64,000 bases of DNA from Naganishia liquefaciens (Eukaryota > Basidiomycota > Tremellomycetes > Filobasidiales > Filobasidiaceae): the NCBI GenBank assembly GCA_013423385.1, contig BLZA01000013.1, positions 1 to 64,000 on the forward strand, given 5' to 3'. The translations under genes and the position numbers were made by a program. Positions 24,139 through 33,247 of this stretch are shown here, piece after piece. Position 1 is the stretch's first letter; every line of letters begins with the position of its first letter. The notes under the pieces are model-generated. The model worked only from the letters and a program-made list of their open reading frames with translations, did not search any database and was not told the DNA's origin.

Positions 24139-27100
24139 ATGCCTAAGGAGCTCAAGAAACGCCAAAGGGGTGGAAGAAGCAAGAAGAAGAACGATTCGGA
24201 TCAGCAAAACCAGGCCGAAATTGAAGCGAAATCCTTGTCAAATCGATCCGAATTTCATGAGCAAGACTTTGTGGCCCTAGATGGCAGCTTGGGTCCTTCC
24301 TCAGGCCCAATCGTGCCCAGAGTAGCCAATGATCCACAGATTCAGGGGGGAAATGAGGTGGACCCTGCTGCGCCATTTGGATTCGTTGACCCTGATATCA
24401 AAGCGTATTTTAGAAGTGTGGATGAGCGCTTACGGGAGTGGGAGGGTCTTGGACTACGGTCAGGGGCAGACGCCGAATCAGAGCTTGAGGGTGAGCATGG
24501 CTTCCAGAGAGCCAACTTCTGAGCTCACGCTTCTTTCCCTTCGTTCTTGTAACTGCAGATCGTACGAGCTTTTTACATTCGAGCTTGGTGGAACTGCGTT
24601 CATTGGAACTAAAGCTGTCGACGGATCAGGATTGCGCGCTGATCATGGAAAGATTGCTACACTCGATGGGGGATTGGGGCCGAAGAGTCGTTGCCGACTC
24701 ATTCGCAGGACAGTCAGTCTCGCTCTCTCGATGGAAATGGACGCTCTTCTCATTTCGTTCTCTGCAGCTGGAATTTGCTCATACAGCACCGTTTCGGTTC
24801 TCATGTGTGCCAAACATTGTTCAGTCTGGCCGCCGATACGATAGATCGAGAGGTAGGTCGCTTGAGGAGGAGAGTCTTCCGCTGGAGACTTACTATGGGG
24901 TATCATCAGGCGAAAGGGATATACCCTAAACAGCATCAGGAACAGGAAGAGAGCCTGAAAGAAAATCCTCAGATCGGGACCTTGCGTAGCATGACCCTCT
25001 TGATTATCGATTTGGCCAAGGTACGAGATCCCGGTTACCAGGCATTGGTCTGCATGACTTAGTGAAGCTCAATCAATAGGAATTGATGCCCCATTTGCCA
25101 CATCTTCTTGTCTCACCCTTCGCCTCGCCACCGCTGCGAACACTTCTGTTGCTGCTCTCGCCTGGACGAGCGGTCCCTTCCACCAAGGGCTCCAGTCAGG
25201 ATGACAAGCGTATCAGATCGAAGAAAAGTGCCAAGTTCCGGATCAATCAGGCTTCCCAAATGCAGTCGATCGTGCATAACGAGAATGAAGATCCGTCTGC
25301 CGTTGGAGAGGGAAAGAAAGCGGAGCGCATTGTTCCAGCAGAGCTCCGTGATGCGCGACATCGCATTCTGGAATACTTGAAAAAACGGCTTAGCCCTGTT
25401 GAGTGGCGGTCGATGGGTGTAGAGAACGTCGGCAGTCCGACGATCCAAGTACGTAGCTGCGTCTAGTTCTAGTCCTTCAATTTTCTGAGCGCTCGTTTCA
25501 CAGGTACTGCTTGAATGCGAGCACGATGAAGGAGTCTCTAATCGAGCGGGCAGTATTTTGGACAACTTGACGTCAGGTCTTGTAGGACAGCAGGGTGCGT
25601 TGCTTGTCTCCGATCTGCAGCATTTCAACTGATAAGCTCATTTTCGATAACAGCTTTGTCGTCGCCGCCTGAACCCATGGCAGATGATTTTTTCCCGTCT
25701 CTTTTCAGGGATACGACTGGCTCCCATCTTGCGCAGGCCATTCTGATCACGGCTTCAGAAAACATATTCGACATTTTGTGGCGACTTCATTTCGTGGGCA
25801 AGATTGGGAAGCTCTCAACACATCCTATTGCCAATTTCGTCGTCTCGACGGGAGTCAAACGCGCCAACGAAGAGCAGATGCAAAGAGTCGTCGAGGAATT
25901 AAAGGCGGTCGATCCCTCATCTCTGATTCGTGAGTCTCAAATTCCGTACCAAATTCGCCAACTGCCTCGAAAGCTCACTCCCGTACTATAGGGTCCGCCA
26001 AGACCTCCGTGCTGCAAGCTCTGATATCCCGCTCGGGTTACACAGGTTACCTCCGCGGAGAAGTGTCCAATGTGGGATACCGTTGTGTAGCAGTACCTTT
26101 GCATTTTGCTTACGCGTTCCGCATTGGCTCTACAGTTGATATGCTTGGCCTTCGAACTCAAGACGTACCCGGAGAAGAAGCTACTGGTGCAATGTGCCCT
26201 CACCATGAATGTGCTCAAGGCAAGTCCATTCAATTATTGTTGAGAGCGTCACCTAACCTTTCGCCATAGTCTTACCAGAGGGCATTGAGGGTTTCCAAAG
26301 GCGAGGAGGAGGAGCCGGCACTTGATGAGGAGCTGGAAGACAAAAAGCCGGAAGCGCAGCAGCATGGGTGGAAACCTCGTCAACCCAGAAGGCAAACAGG
26401 CGGAACACTTGAACCAACAATGCAGGGCGCTCTGCTCCTTCAGGAGATCATCGGCGCAGGAAAGGGATTGCATGAGAACGTCCTGGATAGGTTCGTGCTA
26501 CTCAGCTTCATCGGGCTCTAGAACTGACTTCTCGGCGAATCCCAGTCTCACGAGCATGACGGCTGAGGAGCTTTTGACCATGGCCACAAGCCCAATATCT
26601 TCGCACATTCTGGACGCTGCGCTCACAAACGCGACTGTCGAATTCAAATGGCGCCGGAAACTCTTGATGGCTTTTATGGGACATTACCTTGAACTTGCCT
26701 CCGACAAGCTTGGCAGCCGCGTAGCTGACACAATCTGGGACAGGGCTGCTGACGGTTTCACCAAGGTCCGTATCGCGGATCTGCATACCAGTGAATAGGA
26801 ACGATGAACTGACCTATCTTGGAAATCGACAGGAAAAAATCGCCAGGTCATTGATCGATCGACACAATGCGTTGTCCGAGTCTCAATACGGCAAATACTT
26901 TGCGAGAAAGCTCAACCTACCACTGCTGCAGCGTCGGCCACAAGAATGGAAAGAGCTTCAACTCGGCGTGGTCCATCATTTCCACGGCTCTAGGCTGCAA
27001 GATAAGGGTGGAGCCGCTCAAGGGTTCATGACTGGCCGACAGGAAGGCAAGACGAGCTCAGTGACTGAAAGTGAGGCAATGTCGGCCGACAAACCATCAA

Positions 27101-27195
27101 AGAAACGTAAACTTAAAACGGATGACGAGACCGCGGTCATCGACAGTCTCTTTGCCGACGTTACGGAGAAGAAGAGCAAGAAATCCAAGGCCTAG
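24139..27195 (+). CDS. NOP9: Nucleolar pre-40S factor Nop9 (pumilio-repeat)
   Basis: Twelve exons (24139-24490, 24559-24712, 24768-24852, 24910-25020, 25080-25448, 25504-25594, 25654-25929, 25992-26086, 26136-26219, 26270-26490, 26546-26765, 26833-27195), 806 aa. Basic N-terminus (KELKKRQRGGRSKKK), then Nop9 marks: IKAYFRSVDERLREWE, ERLLHSMGDWGRRV, QHRFGSHVCQTLFSLAADT, FRDTTGSHLAQAIL, TMQGALLLQEIIGAGKG, SPISSHILDAAL, DKLGSRVADTIWD and SQYGKYFARKLNL. The C-terminus is Lys-rich (KKSKKSKA). Family knowledge: U-shaped pumilio-like protein that binds the 20S pre-rRNA near cleavage site D and prevents early processing by Nob1. Intron 9 (26220-26269) is GC-AG with GCAAGT. All twelve joins keep phase. 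Converges with TIM22. Confidence 0.93.
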
Positions 27196-27433
27196 TCGAG
27201 TATTCAGTCGCATGTCGTTGTAGCTGTAGGCTTGACTTTGCCGAGTAGAGATATTCTATGCGACCGTCTTCTACCATACAACATGTGATGCTATGTGAGC
27301 CCAAGACTACAAGCGGTGGCGGCTAAAATTACATGGGAGAATGCGAAGTGTTCTGCTGCTCAATCCTCTCTGATGTATCGCAAAAGATGTAGGATCAGTC
27401 AACGGTCAGAGCTGACTAGGCACACGCCTAAAC

Positions 27434-28088
27434 TTACTCTGCTGGCTCCTTCCGTATCCACAAATCGATTGCGGCAGAGAATGCCGCGAAAGCAGCGCCT
27501 CCTCCCAACGCCGCGCGTAGGCCCGACGACCGGGCCAGAACAGCACCAGATAAGAATCCACCGGCGACAGCGTTGTAAATGTCATTCTTGGCACGGTACT
27601 GAGTTGAAGAGGTGCGTTAACACTGGCGGCCGCACACGTAAGCCGTCTTGACTCACACCCTCTATGCAACATTCGAATCCAGAATACAGTGCACCGACTT
27701 TGGCGAATCCTTTACCACTCGTCCACATATTCCTTCCCATTTCCTTGAAAATGTATGCCGTTTGCGCACGCGTCCCGACAAGCTTCTCTGAAGCTTTCGA
27801 CAGCGGGTCTTCATACGCAAAAGTTGCCGACATCAAGGAGAAGAATGCTCCCAAACCGAATCCTGCGACATAGGGACGGTGAGCGCGAGCAAATATCGTT
27901 CGTCCAGGCTACTCACCAGCCCCACCAGACAGGACAACCTTTACGGGACAGCTTTCCATGGCGTAACCCGCGTATTTACCATACTTGACCATCTGCTGCA
28001 TCTCTTGTCGTTCCTCCGGTGTCGTACCTGGCGGGACGGGCTCTTGGCCCGGGAGATATAGCGGTGCAAGGAGAGGCATCTGCGACAT
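27434..28088 (-). CDS. TIM22: Mitochondrial inner-membrane translocase subunit Tim22
   Basis: Three exons (28088-27917, 27862-27657, 27598-27434), 180 aa, the usual Tim22 length. Family blocks are clear: [72 protein letters not shown] and a glycine-rich last segment ([31 protein letters not shown]). Family knowledge: channel-forming core of the TIM22 complex, which inserts metabolite carriers into the inner membrane; Tim17/22/23 fold with four membrane helices. The second donor is GGT|GTGAGT, the only choice that gives EGYRAKND. The stop TAA (27436-27434) overlaps a GTAAGT, so a few extra residues from a further exon cannot be excluded. Divergent from glutathione reductase. Confidence 0.93.
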
Positions 28089-28494
28089 GGCGAGGGAGTG
28101 GGCGATGGCCTATGACGAAACCAGGAGGGATGGACACTGGACTGATCACGGTGCTGCCCAACTTTTATTTTACGAGATGCCCAGACTAAAGACCGTATTG
28201 CGCGCCCGCTCTTGATCGCCCTGGCCGGCGGCCGAGAGATCTCCCCTCGGCCCTCAGCCGCCCCGCCAACTCTGTCTGCGCCGCTCTCCGCATGATTATC
28301 GATTATTGCTTATTGCTTATTGATTCAGATTGGTGATCACCGGCGACTGCCCGCATGCCCGCCTGCCCGCCTGCTTTATGGGATTTCGGTCAATGACATC
28401 GCCCCTACGACGCGCGGCATTATAAGACCATCCATCTCAGCCACCCACGGGAACGCAGCAACAACGCTTCGCCCCAGACAGCCCACATCTCAAA
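28089..28494. promoter_or_regulatory. Divergent promoter TIM22 / glutathione reductase
   Basis: A run of attgctt units (gattattgcttattgcttattgattcag, near 28301-28327) and a tataag at 28421-28426 are the only visible elements. The tataag would place the glutathione reductase transcript start so that the arginine-rich stretch from 28495 lies in the transcript. A small upstream ATG frame (28393, ten codons) lies before the tataag and may not be transcribed. Confidence 0.45.
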
Positions 28495-28674
28495 CTGGCG
28501 TCCCTCATCTCGACTTCTGCATTGTACCGGGCCATCCGTCCCTGTCGATCCGTCTTCAATTCGACAACACTCCGGTCTGCTCGAGCTTTATCCACATCTT
28601 CATACATTGTTACGAGATCCCGAGCAACACCTTGTCGAGCACCTAGGTCTTCATCTAGTATCCCTATCTCCCTT
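28495..28674 (+). other. Candidate CTG-initiated mitochondrial presequence exon of glutathione reductase
   Basis: A 60-codon open stretch starts at a CTG in strong context (aaaCTGg: A at -3, G at +4). It contains nine Arg, no Asp, Glu or Lys, and many Ser/Ala/Thr, e.g. STSALYRAIRPCRSVFN and TTLRSARALSTSS, which is textbook mitochondrial-targeting composition. It ends exactly at a donor CTT|GTGAGT (28675). Splicing to the near acceptor (28750) makes it 5' UTR just ahead of the AUG at 28752. Splicing to a second acceptor ACACAG (28781) joins it in phase to Glu11 of the enzyme and removes that AUG. The frame has no ATG upstream. Composition and phase are seen; use in the cell is inference. Confidence 0.5.
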
Positions 28675-28751
28675 GTGAGTCCAGGCGCATTGCTTGCGAG
28701 CGAAAAACCAACATTCGCTTTTGATAGACTTTGAAACGAAATTGGGTCAGT

Positions 28752-30634
28752 ATGCCCCCCTTGGACAAGAAGCAAACACAGGAATTGCCAGAGTACGATG
28801 CATTCTACATCGGTGGTGGATCCGGTGGTCTGGCGGCTGCCGTATGTCCCCCACTCATGAACCAGCAAACCCATATCGATTAATCTTCTGTTTTACCATT
28901 CAGCGCCGAGCAGGCAGCTACGGAGCTAATGTCGGTCTGGTAGAAGCCTCATACCGCCTTGGCGGCACGTGCGTCAATGTCGGTATGTAATGGCTCAATC
29001 TTCGCTCGTCGGATGTCTGATACTTTCCCGCCGCAGGCTGTGTACCCAAGAAGATCATGTGGTACACCGCAGACATGGCCGACAGCCTTCGAAAGGCTGC
29101 TGCATACGGCTTTGGCGGTGAGGCCGAAGAGCTGGCTTTGCCCAAGTTCAACTGGACGACTCTGAAGCACAAGCGAGATGCCTACATCAAGCGGTTGAAT
29201 GGAATCTAGTAAGCAACCTGCTGCGTATGCGCCTCATTGGTGCTTATGGCATTCGCATTCCAGCGAGAAGAATCTGGTCAAAGACAACGTAGCCTATCAC
29301 GAAGGTTACGCATCCTTCCTCAACAAGAATGAGGTACAAATCGAGAGGCCAGACGGTTCCAAGTACACGGTCCGAGCGAAGAAATTCATTGTCGCTGTTG
29401 GCGGCCGACCGACTATCCCCAAGGACGAGGATATCCCTGGAGCCTCGTACGGTATCGATTCTGATGGTTTCTTCGATATCGAAGAGCAGCCGAAGCGCGT
29501 TGCTGTCGTCGGAGCTGGTTATATCGCCGTTGAATTGGCTGGCGTGTTCCATTCGCTAGGAACGGAGACCCACTTGATGATCCGACATGACAGAGTTTTG
29601 CGGACTTTCGACCCCATGCTGCAGGATGTCCTTACAGAGCACATGGGTATGTAGTCCGGGACCCCGGGAAGAGAGGAAAAACTCATCTATCCTTCCCCTT
29701 GATAGAGAAGACGGGAGTCAACATCCACAAGAAGACCAACGTCAAAAAGGTCGAGAAGACCGCCAACGGTCTTCTGGTGTACACCGACTCTTCCGAGAAG
29801 CCTGTCGAAGTTGATGTATTGCTGTGGGCCATCGGTCGACATGCCAACACCGAGAAGCTGGGTCTCGAAAACGTCAATGTCAAGGTTACCGAAAAGACTG
29901 GCGACATTGTCGCCGACGAGTACCAGAACACCAATGTGGAAAACATCTACGCAATCGGTGATGTTGCTGGAAAGGTCCTTCTCACGCCTGTTGCAATCGC
30001 CGCCGGTCGACGCCTCTCTAACAGACTGTTCGGACCCGCTCAGTACAAGGATGACAAGCTCTCGTACGAGGACATTCCTAGTGTCGTCTTTTCGTGCGTT
30101 AGAATGCTCCCAGTTCTATCTTCGTGACTGACATTGAGTGCTTCTAGGCATCCCACTATCGGCTCCATTGGTCTGACAGAGCCGGAAGCGGCCGAAAAAT
30201 ATGGCAAAGATAACCTGAAAATCTACAACACCTCGGTAAGCCTTCCTAGGTGAAAAGGCAATAGGCTTCTGATAGTTTCTCCCATGTACAGTTCCGAGCC
30301 ATGTCTTGCGCCATGTTGGATGAAGATCACAAGTCTCCGACATCATACAAATTGATCTGTGTCGGAAAGGAGGAGAAGGTCGTCGGCTTGCACTTGATCG
30401 GTGACGGTTCCGATGAGATGCTGCAAGGCTGTGAGTCGGTCTCTGCTCGTCAACTGTCAATGTGACCTGACTCATGTTTTGACAGTCGGCGTGGCGATCA
30501 AGATGGGCGCTACTAAGGCCGATTTCGATAGCTGTGTCGCGATTCGTAAGTGGTGACAAACATACATACATCCGCCTGACTGACATCTGTCTTCAGACCC
30601 CACTTCATCCGAGGAATTGGTCACTTTGCGATAA
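28752..30634 (+). CDS. GLR1: Glutathione reductase (NADPH)
   Basis: Nine exons (28752-28841, 28904-28982, 29037-29208, 29264-29646, 29706-30093, 30148-30235, 30292-30430, 30486-30545, 30597-30634), 478 aa. FAD-binding [13 protein letters not shown], redox disulfide GTCVNVGCVPKK, NADPH-binding [11 protein letters not shown] with the downstream basic residues (MIRHDRVLR) typical of NADPH use, second FAD motif YAIGDVAG, and dimer-partner active-site HPTSSEE at the C-terminus. Reduces GSSG to GSH. The AUG at 28752 gives the cytosolic form ([10 protein letters not shown]...). A 5' UTR intron (28675-28750) probably ends one nucleotide before it. A longer, mitochondrial form is proposed from the preceding feature. 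Converges with the HVA1-type gene. Confidence 0.95.
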
Positions 30635-30797
30635 GACACGGGATATGGATGGCTGACTGAGAAGAACAGCGCTGTAGGATTCAATCATAGCTCGGTTCTT
30701 ATTTCATATAGAAAGTAATCGATTTGAAACTGCTATCATCGCCCCGCGCTTATAGCAAGTGCCGCACGTCTGTCCTGTCTATCATGTCTGGGTCACG

Positions 30798-31295
30798 TCA
30801 ATCCTTCTCGACGTCAACCTCGTTTAGTTCATGTGCTCGCTTCACAACGTTGTTCTGTCGGGGAAAACGCCTCAAACCCTAGATCTACTCCAACGCGAAT
30901 GCAGACTTACTCCTGAGCGCTCAATGACGACTGCTGGATCTTCCGGCGTGCCGTTCTTGGCGATGGTGTTGCCTGGAGATTCGGGCGAGGCTGCTATCAG
31001 CGGATAGTTGTCAACATGCTTTGGTGCCAAGGTTTACCTTTGTTCGACTTGACTTCTGCTCGTTCCTCCTTGACTTCTGCCACCTTTCCAGCTAGACGAA
31101 GCAAGTATAGCGATCATTCAGATCATAAACGCTGATGATAGTTTACTCATATAGTCTCACATGGCTGACCGCCTCCCCAGTTCCAGCTCACTTCATCACC
31201 CTGGGAGAGATAGTGGATCGTGCGCACTGTCAGATTCGCTACACATGATCGCCTTCTGCGCGATCCGCACAGACCTTTTGCAATTGATCGGCCAT
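30798..31295 (-). CDS. Hypervirulence-associated (HVA1) Tudor-domain small protein
   Basis: Five exons (31295-31275, 31200-31161, 31091-31038, 30972-30911, 30854-30798), 77 aa, the usual length of the family. The spliced protein reads MADQLQK, GDEVSWNWGGGQPSGKV, AEVKEERAEVKSNKGNTIA, KNGTPEDPAVVIERSG and ends VVKRAHELNEVDVEKD. These are the marks of the HVA1 Tudor family (Pfam name), small soluble proteins common in fungi and bacteria whose biochemical role is unknown. The family name comes from a Cryptococcus gene found in a metabolic/virulence study. The individual exons are too short for ORF scanning, but phase is kept through all five. Converges with glutathione reductase. Confidence 0.88.
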
Positions 31296-31874
31296 GTTGT
31301 GACGTTATCGATGATGAAGAATGCGTGAAGTCGAATGTAGATGAGTAGACTGGGCTATGGAAATCGTCGAGATCACTGGGATATTCGGTGTGGGCACTAC
31401 GTATATAGTTAGGCAACGTGATACCTACCCTGTGTTTCCCTTTAAGCCCTGGCACATGGACACACGGAGAAAGAGGAGACGACGACGGTCGACGACGAGA
31501 AGCAGGCGGTTTTGCGGATCGTCTCGATCTGAGACATACGTTCGTCATGATTGCGGCACATGAAGGAGACAAGCAGAATGACATCACGAGGGCTTGGGGA
31601 GCTGCTCAGGGAAACTTGAACGGCGGGGCTTTCTGAGCGAATTGCTGAATCAACCAGAATGATCGGAAAGGACGCAACGGGAAACAGAGAAGTATGCGAA
31701 TTCAGACGTCCGCGCGAACTAAGACGAGAGTGGTTGGTCTCGTGTGGCGATGATGACGAACGTTGGTTGTAACAGCTGTTGCAACGATCATGTTCGGAGG
31801 AGCATCGACTCCTCGGCCGCTAATGCTTATCGATGCTGACCCCGCTGCTCGACCAGAAGGGAATTCGCCATCTC
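31296..31874. other. Intergenic, promoter side of the HVA1-type gene
   Basis: About 580 bp between the HVA1-type start and the next minus-strand stop. Purine-rich (agaaagaggagacgacgacgg) near 31470. No gene recognised. Confidence 0.5.
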
Positions 31875-33247
31875 TCATAAGCTGCGTACACTACGACCCA
31901 TATCTCCTTCTGCCATTTCCTCGCCCGAAGAACCGACCTTCAACCGCGCGGCGATCATCTGGCCCAGTTTTTTCCATGCTTTCCGCCCTATTTCTTTGTC
32001 CTTTCCATCCAGCTGGAGTACATCCAAGAAGCTCTCTCCGAGGTTGAGATAATCATCTGAACTGGCAGCATCGGACGGGAAAGGCCGATCCTTCTTGAGT
32101 TGTCCACCGGGTTTGGCGAGATGCGGTAAATCGTCTGGGAACAAAGGCTGTTCGTAACCGGTCGGTACGCTTTCAATACACCAGCGTATGATCTCCCGTA
32201 TACGAGATAGAATGCTCCGTTCGCCGATTGCAGGATGCGAGTTCGACGGATAGGACGGTTCCGCTGCTTCGAGTGTTTCACGAGCGGAGAGGAGGTATGC
32301 ATAAAGGGATCCACGATCCGCGATTGCGTAAAGCAATGCCGTCAGAGCGTCTGGTATGATGGATTTTCAGCTGTCTCGCAATCAAATGATGCGACATACT
32401 CGCCATTGAAGCGTCCTGCTGTATGATATGCTCGACTGGCCGATTCCGCAAGACCCGCATGACCCGATATCTTCCACTGCGAAACTGAGGATTAGGAGAC
32501 GTCACTAAGGCTGCAGTAGCGTACTCACGTATTTCTGGCTCGCATCCGCTAGGTATCCAGCCCATCCGGCTTCATTCAGCTTTACACAGGTTCTCATGAC
32601 CGTGCTATAAATCTCGCGCGACAGCGCATTGGCTCGGTTTTCGACAGCCTTGTCAAGGGTTGCCGAGCTGAAAGGTGGAACAGTCGCGTCATAGCTGCCC
32701 CCTAGAATGATATTCAGACATTTGCGGTAATCTCCCGCATAGTAAGCATATGCCGCGTTGGCGTCTGCGAGCAAAGAATCCAAATTTAGACTCGACTTCC
32801 TCGCGACGAAGAGTCGGGACTCACCGAGCATCTTCTGATCCGTCTCTTGCGCATCGTTCGCGTCAATATGAACGTTGCCGGATTTGCTGGAGACGACTTG
32901 ACTTGTGTACTCATATGGATGCCGATCAAGGCCAATGTACCACTAAGGAAGAGTTCAGCTGACGATCCGAGAATGACGAAAATCGTGATGCTGGAGCTTA
33001 CACCGGTCTCTGTATAGCCATGTTCAGCTTTGTATAGCCGTTTGCTCTCCTCGTATGCAGCGCGCATGCGTTCATCCCGATTCCGTGGCTTCAGCAAGTC
33101 ATCACTTTTTGCTGATCCCGAGGCAACATCCTTGTCATTTTCATTGTCATCTAGGCCAAGCGACGTGAAGAAGTAATCCTCCTCTTTGGTGGATGTATCT
33201 GCGACGGAAGTCACGCGACTGTTGTCAGGAGGCGAGGCAGGGGCCAT
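31875..33247 (-). CDS. Conserved-looking helical (TPR-like) protein, function unknown
   Basis: Five exons (33247-33002, 32942-32825, 32764-32529, 32484-32400, 32350-31875), 386 aa. All phases agree, with donors GTAAGC, GTGAGT, GTGAGT and GTATGT. After an acidic, disordered start come helix pairs with TPR flavour (NAAYAYYAGDYRKCLNIILGG, RANALSREIYSTVMRTCVKL, AGWAGYLADASQKYFRSGRY, SMANALTALLYAIADRGSLYAYLLSA). A Pro-rich segment and a C-terminal helix (GRKAWKKLGQMIAARL) follow. No membrane segment, no catalytic motif. No family name can be given; a role as an interaction scaffold is only a guess from the helical repeats. The start at 33247 has the better context (agaATGg); an in-frame ATG at 33280 is possible. 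Divergent from the alcohol dehydrogenase. Confidence 0.72.

What the first reader, a model, noticed from the sequence alone, without database searches (positions are those of the whole stretch)
28495..28790. Possible splice-controlled dual targeting of glutathione reductase with a CTG start
Seen: a 60-codon stretch from CTG 28495 (A at -3, G at +4) has nine Arg and no Asp, Glu or Lys, and stops exactly at CTT|GTGAGT (28675). The nearest acceptor GGTCAG (28750) leaves one base before AUG 28752, giving a cytosolic enzyme with a 5' UTR intron. A second acceptor, ACACAG (28781), 31 nt further, joins the stretch in frame (phase 0 to phase 0) to Glu11 and removes AUG 28752 from the message. Translation would then have to start upstream, at the CTG. 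Known: yeast GLR1 makes cytosolic and mitochondrial forms from two AUGs of one mRNA. A switch by competing acceptors plus a non-AUG start would be a different solution.
Basis: partly seen in the sequence, partly recalled or inferred. Interest (0 to 1): 0.8.

Follow-up and report, generated by a model that had tools for sequence, protein, structure and literature searches.

The report
Likely non-AUG mitochondrial glutathione reductase
In a Naganishia yeast the glutathione reductase gene probably makes a mitochondrial form by starting translation at a non-AUG codon upstream of the usual start, a trick already known in related fungi, and the proposed splice switch is not needed because a better splice site joins the two pieces in frame.

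Summary
The window is Naganishia liquefaciens (Tremellomycetes); this is the only glutathione reductase (GR) gene found there, annotated from ATG 28752. From donor 28675, acceptor CTTTTGATAG ending at 28727 gives a 53-nt intron, at the genome's modal length. It scores at the 74th percentile of a reference set, like the gene's eight coding introns; acceptors 28750 and 28781 (76 and 107 nt) score at the 3rd and 8th. Acceptor 28727 joins the Arg-rich CTG frame, in phase and without a stop, to Met1. One mRNA can then make both forms: rare initiation at CUG 28495 or a nearby near-cognate codon gives a mitochondrial precursor; scanning on to AUG 28752 gives the cytosolic enzyme. Annotated extensions of relatives (8 of 120 listed) also run straight into the same Met. 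ArgRS and LeuRS of the same genome show similar leader frames, as published for Cryptococcus. Against it: targeting-like composition is only modestly beyond chance, codon usage does not support translation, conservation was not found, and no RNA or ribosome data were available. A plausible new member of a known kind.

The parts
28495..28674 (+). exon 1, CTG-initiated frame: candidate mitochondrial targeting sequence (60 codons, nine Arg, no Asp/Glu/Lys; amphipathic stretch SALYRAIRPCRSVFNSTT; R-10-like motif RALSTSSYIV)
   Evidence: the R-10 motif is recalled and seen by eye, no predictor was run
28495..28497 (+). CTG, best-context near-cognate codon of the frame (aaaCTGg); likely but unproved start
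   Evidence: of 11 in-frame near-cognates from 28426 to 28674, the only one with both A at -3 and G at +4
28675..28727 (+). preferred leader intron, 53 nt: GTGAGT...CCAAC (A 16 nt before the end)...TTTTGATAG
   Evidence: donor at 51st, acceptor at 74th percentile of 167 reference introns; length at the genome's mode; branch-point candidate weak
28728..28751 (+). eight codons (TLKRNWVS) that link the extension in frame to Met1
   Evidence: 3rd percentile
   Evidence: 8th percentile, no branch point found
28752..30634 (+). glutathione reductase coding region, 478 aa and stop, nine coding exons (28752-28841, 28904-28982, 29037-29208, 29264-29646, 29706-30093, 30148-30235, 30292-30430, 30486-30545, 30597-30634)
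   Evidence: (joined translation identical to P0001), (TIGR01421, 666.2 bits, cut-off 556.15)

Best explanation
The one GR gene found in Naganishia liquefaciens makes two proteins from one mRNA. The leader has a 53-nt intron (28675-28727). After splicing, a frame without AUG that begins at or near CUG 28495 runs through 68 codons straight into Met1. A small share of ribosomes start at the near-cognate codon and make a precursor with an Arg-rich, amphipathic presequence that enters mitochondria. Most scan on to AUG 28752, the first AUG of the message, and make the cytosolic enzyme. Shown: frame, phases, absence of AUG, splice-site scores, one GR gene found. Inferred: splicing at 28727, initiation at the CUG, import.
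For: Acceptor 28727 at the 74th percentile against 3rd and 8th for the others, and like the gene's own eight (44th-88th). Candidate introns peak at 45-69 nt (167 donor-acceptor pairs against 30 in reversed sequence), with no excess at 90 nt or more under the strict setting. In-frame fusion without stop, no ATG 28400-28751. Arg-rich, acid-free frame in 0.095% of shuffles; highest hydrophobic moment of the three frames, 0.54 against 0.43 and 0.30. One GR gene found in the 19.4-Mb assembly; the N-terminal piece of the other hit is closest to dihydrolipoyl dehydrogenase, though as a piece it stays below that model's cut-off. Of 120 listed relatives 8 have annotated extensions, and all 8 run directly into a Met-Pro-Pro or Met-Ala-Pro start. 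Same genome: ArgRS has in-frame gccaccACG 129 nt upstream of its ATG, LeuRS an upstream frame ending LRTFTTTRTLN-M; neither has any ATG in the 200 nt upstream. Cryptococcus ArgRS and LeuRS start at AUU and ACG-AUU upstream of predicted mitochondrial signals, and eIF5 has an upstream CUG (PMC7049704, passages).
Against: No RNA-seq, ribosome or import data. Codon usage of exon 1 does not look coding in the CTG frame: -0.42 bits per codon, against -0.37 in frame 1 and -0.08 in frame 2 with its two stops left out; the synonymous score is also best in frame 2. Two searches of 5.8 billion proteins with the extension gave nothing at E up to 10 (182 and 80 candidates), so conservation is not shown. 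Such composition occurs at about 2% per leader and frame in this genome. The branch point for 28727 (CCAAC) is weak: assigned to only 4 of 306 loosely defined introns, against 8 for the TTGAT of 28750. The transcript start is unknown; the TATA-like TTATAAG at 28420 (by eye) would allow starts before or after 28495. Longer introns exist: ArgRS has 133, 71 and 93 nt. Most listed relatives are annotated without extension.
Confidence: 0.6

Rival explanations
1. Plain untranslated leader: exon 1 is a C/T-rich 5' UTR with a leader intron, and the gene makes cytosolic GR only (or reaches mitochondria by another route). The Arg-rich frame is a by-product of base composition.
For: Codon usage not coding-like in the CTG frame; no relatives of the extension found; such composition at about 2% per leader and frame in this genome; annotators start the protein at ATG 28752 (P0001).
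Against: In-phase fusion through the best acceptor, no ATG over 350 nt, CTG in strong context; extensions at the same Met in 8 of 120 listed relatives.
Confidence: 0.32
2. One reading: acceptors 28750 and 28781 compete; the longer intron removes AUG 28752 and forces initiation at the CTG.
For: Both sites exist and 28781 is phase 0 into Glu11.
Against: Acceptor scores at the 3rd and 8th percentiles, introns of 76 and 107 nt, no branch point found for 28781, better site upstream. The first AUG of the 28781 message is out-of-frame ATG 28798. The 8 extended relatives keep the Met inside.
Confidence: 0.04
3. Refinement that overlaps the best explanation: acceptors 28727 and 28750 compete. 28727 makes both forms, 28750 only the cytosolic one, because it puts the CUG frame out of phase. 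Splicing would then tune the mitochondrial share.
For: 28750 has a TTGAT branch-point candidate 26 nt upstream, with the TAG of 28727 lying directly behind it; intron 30236-30291 of the same gene also has a CTGATAG whose TAG is passed over (sequence, by eye).
Against: 28750 is at the 3rd percentile with 33% pyrimidine.
Confidence: 0.12

Closest known systems
Saccharomyces cerevisiae GLR1 (two in-frame AUGs; Outten and Culotta 2004, as described in PMC4851219, passages)
   Same: One GR gene, longer mitochondrial and shorter cytosolic form from two in-frame starts.
   Different: The upstream start here is not AUG, and a leader intron lies between the two starts.
Cryptococcus ArgRS and LeuRS with AUU and ACG-AUU starts for mitochondrial forms (PMC7049704, passages)
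   Same: Same class of fungi; near-cognate start in good context upstream of a predicted mitochondrial targeting sequence.
   Different: Other enzymes; that paper mapped translation genome-wide (its abstract), here there is sequence only.
Saccharomyces cerevisiae Gpx3, non-AUG 18-residue extension (PMC5368413, passages)
   Same: Redox enzyme given a mitochondrial form by a non-AUG start.
   Different: Targets the intermembrane space; unrelated enzyme.
Ustilago maydis 6-phosphogluconate dehydrogenase (PMC7214817, abstract and part 1 of 2 of section 4)
   Same: Basidiomycete enzyme whose targeting signal sits in the leader and is read from a non-AUG start, at about 2%.
   Different: Peroxisomal PTS2; start AGG AUU.

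Membership tests
Glutathione-disulfide reductase (TIGR01421) | Score above curated cut-off | tested here: met
   666.2 bits, cut-off 556.15
Dual targeting by leaky initiation from one mRNA | In-frame upstream extension ending at the cytosolic Met, no stop between | tested here: met
   on condition that acceptor 28727 is used
[quoted passage not shown]
   composition and hydrophobic moment only; no predictor or import assay
Non-AUG initiation | No AUG in the extension frame, near-cognate in good context | tested here: met
Non-AUG initiation | Ribosomes start at the near-cognate codon | not testable with these tools
   needs ribosome profiling
Non-AUG initiation | Extension conserved in relatives | tested here: inconclusive
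   searches found nothing, but such proteins are as a rule predicted from AUG; no DNA of related fungi was looked at
Dual targeting by alternative splicing | Two credible competing acceptors that include or exclude the start | tested here: not met
   28781 at 8th and 28750 at 3rd percentile; on sequence scores only, RNA not seen

The most novel reading that the evidence does not exclude
Acceptor choice between 28727 and 28750, 23 nt apart, sets whether the CUG-initiated frame is fused to GR, so that splicing, without touching AUG 28752, tunes the mitochondrial share of a redox enzyme made by non-AUG initiation.
Probability: 0.12. Interest if true: 0.55.

Novelty: new member of a known kind. 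Interest (0 to 1): 0.35.

Why it matters
If true, a mitochondrial GR of this yeast has been missed by annotation, which starts at ATG 28752. It would add a redox enzyme to the near-cognate mitochondrial isoforms reported in Cryptococcus for two tRNA synthetases. It suggests searching the leaders of single-copy, dual-use genes for AUG-less frames that come into phase only across a leader intron.

Tried and rejected
Codon usage of exon 1: no support for the CTG frame. The model rests on about 2084 codons and scores GR itself at 0.37 bits per codon, so it is a weak test, but it counts against the reading. A first script for introns found none; its second version found 6 introns and recovered 3 of the 8 known GR introns, so both were dropped for a signal-based scan with reversed sequence as control. 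Whether that scan recovers all eight GR introns was not checked. Search for the extension among proteins, full-length and fragment-length: nothing. Rfam over 27000-32000: nothing. Literature: the listings show no title or abstract on GR dual targeting in basidiomycetes; none of the papers listed was opened, nor was PMC9549241, which holds all six terms and may bear on it. (3 papers hold the terms, 2 listed) shows none on competing acceptors for a mitochondrial signal in a fungus by title or abstract. Considered and rejected: a second GR gene for mitochondria (none found); reading without splicing (stop at 28735).

Full report
Identity. The window belongs to a 19.45-Mb, 28-contig assembly. Its GR, nine coding exons joined, is identical to P0001, Naganishia liquefaciens NliqN6_1977, 478 aa; the species is in Filobasidiales, Tremellomycetes. 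It passes the curated cut-off of TIGR01421. The search of the assembly found no second GR: 8 of 10 matches are exons of this gene and 2 lie on C3, where the N-terminal piece is closest to dihydrolipoyl dehydrogenase, 255.8 bits, below the whole-protein cut-off of 408.8. Only the best candidates are scored by that tool.

Observation. There is no ATG between 28400 and 28751. The open frame begins at 28426; the Arg-rich, acid-free part begins at CTG 28495. Of 11 in-frame near-cognate codons from 28426 to 28674 only this CTG has both A at -3 and G at +4.

The missed acceptor. From donor 28675 three acceptors were weighed: 28727 (53 nt), 28750 (76 nt) and 28781 (107 nt). In 264 kb of this genome, donor-acceptor pairs with a CTRAY branch site 9-24 nt before the acceptor peak at 45-69 nt: 167 against 30 in reversed sequence; at 90 nt or more there are 68 against 71. 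Looser settings leave an excess up to 89 nt, and without any branch-site demand a slight one at 100-129 nt (504 against 453). Three introns of ArgRS are 133, 71 and 93 nt. So length alone does not exclude the other acceptors. The gene's eight coding introns are 51-62 nt. A weight matrix from the 167 introns (about 30 of them expected false, and their branch-site selection overlaps part of the matrix) puts acceptor 28727 at the 74th percentile, 28750 at the 3rd and 28781 at the 8th; the eight acceptors of the gene lie between the 44th and 88th. Pyrimidine share before the acceptor is 0.67, 0.33 and 0.17; branch-site candidates are CCAAC at 16 nt, TTGAT at 26 nt, and none. Both candidates are weak: they were assigned to 4 and 8 of 306 loosely defined introns, 124 of which had none.

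Consequence. Through 28727 the CTG frame reads ...[21 protein letters not shown]... without stop; through 28750 it is out of phase; through 28781 it lacks Met1 and the first AUG left, for a transcript from 28440, is the out-of-frame 28798. The simplest reading is one mRNA with two starts. A random acceptor would be in phase one time in three, so the phase alone is weak evidence.

Is the extension a targeting signal? For: 0.095% of 20000 dinucleotide shuffles are open, free of Asp/Glu and hold nine or more Arg+Lys; hydrophobic moment 0.54 against 0.43 and 0.30 in the other frames. Against: codon usage of the CTG frame is not coding-like, -0.42 bits per codon against -0.37 and, stops left out, -0.08 in the other two frames; similar stretches occur in 1191 of 520482 60-codon windows of real sequence, which I convert to about 2% per leader in a given frame; protein searches with the extension found nothing.

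Relatives and same-genome parallels. Of the 120 relatives listed (7998 were scored), 114 show the FAD-binding glycine motif used as landmark; 8 of these have annotated extensions: P0010, P0022, P0047, P0053, P0060, P0092, P0094 and P0095. In all 8 the extension runs straight into a Met-Pro-Pro or Met-Ala-Pro 17-20 residues before the motif; 103 of the other 106 start at that Met, and P0026, P0028 and P0031 start otherwise. By eye 5 of the 8 extensions end in an R-x-[FI] motif rich in Ser, Thr or Gly. These are gene predictions, not experiments. In the same genome ArgRS has gccaccACG in frame 129 nt upstream of its ATG, and LeuRS has an upstream frame ending LRTFTTTRTLN before its Met; neither has an ATG in any frame in the 200 nt upstream, though the LeuRS frame holds an ATG 318 nt upstream. 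In Cryptococcus these two enzymes start at AUU and ACG-AUU upstream of predicted mitochondrial signals (PMC7049704, passages).

Verdict. Non-AUG dual targeting is the best reading at about 0.6. The acceptor switch as proposed is unlikely (0.04). A softer switch between 28727 and 28750 remains open (0.12, overlapping the best reading).

Noticed in passing
window 27582-28090, minus strand: A Tim17/Tim22/Tim23 family gene (PF02466, 52.2 bits, cut-off 32.7, on the piece 27582-27908) lies head to head with GR. Its presumed ATG is at 28088 (start chosen by eye), so the two genes would share about 0.4 kb of promoter DNA.
   Followed up: partly
L010 586-714 (ArgRS leader): In-frame gccaccACG 129 nt upstream of the ArgRS ATG, followed by an acid-free, Arg-rich frame; likely a non-AUG mitochondrial form as in Cryptococcus.
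   Followed up: partly
L012 2376-2495, minus strand (LeuRS leader): Upstream frame ending LRTFTTTRTLN-Met, with CTG/TTG codons 108-120 nt upstream of the ATG and no ATG within 200 nt; likely a non-AUG mitochondrial form of LeuRS.
   Followed up: partly
P0022 (Apiotrichum porosum): The annotated GR start lies far upstream of an Arg-rich presequence; the true start may be a near-cognate codon nearer to it.
   Followed up: no
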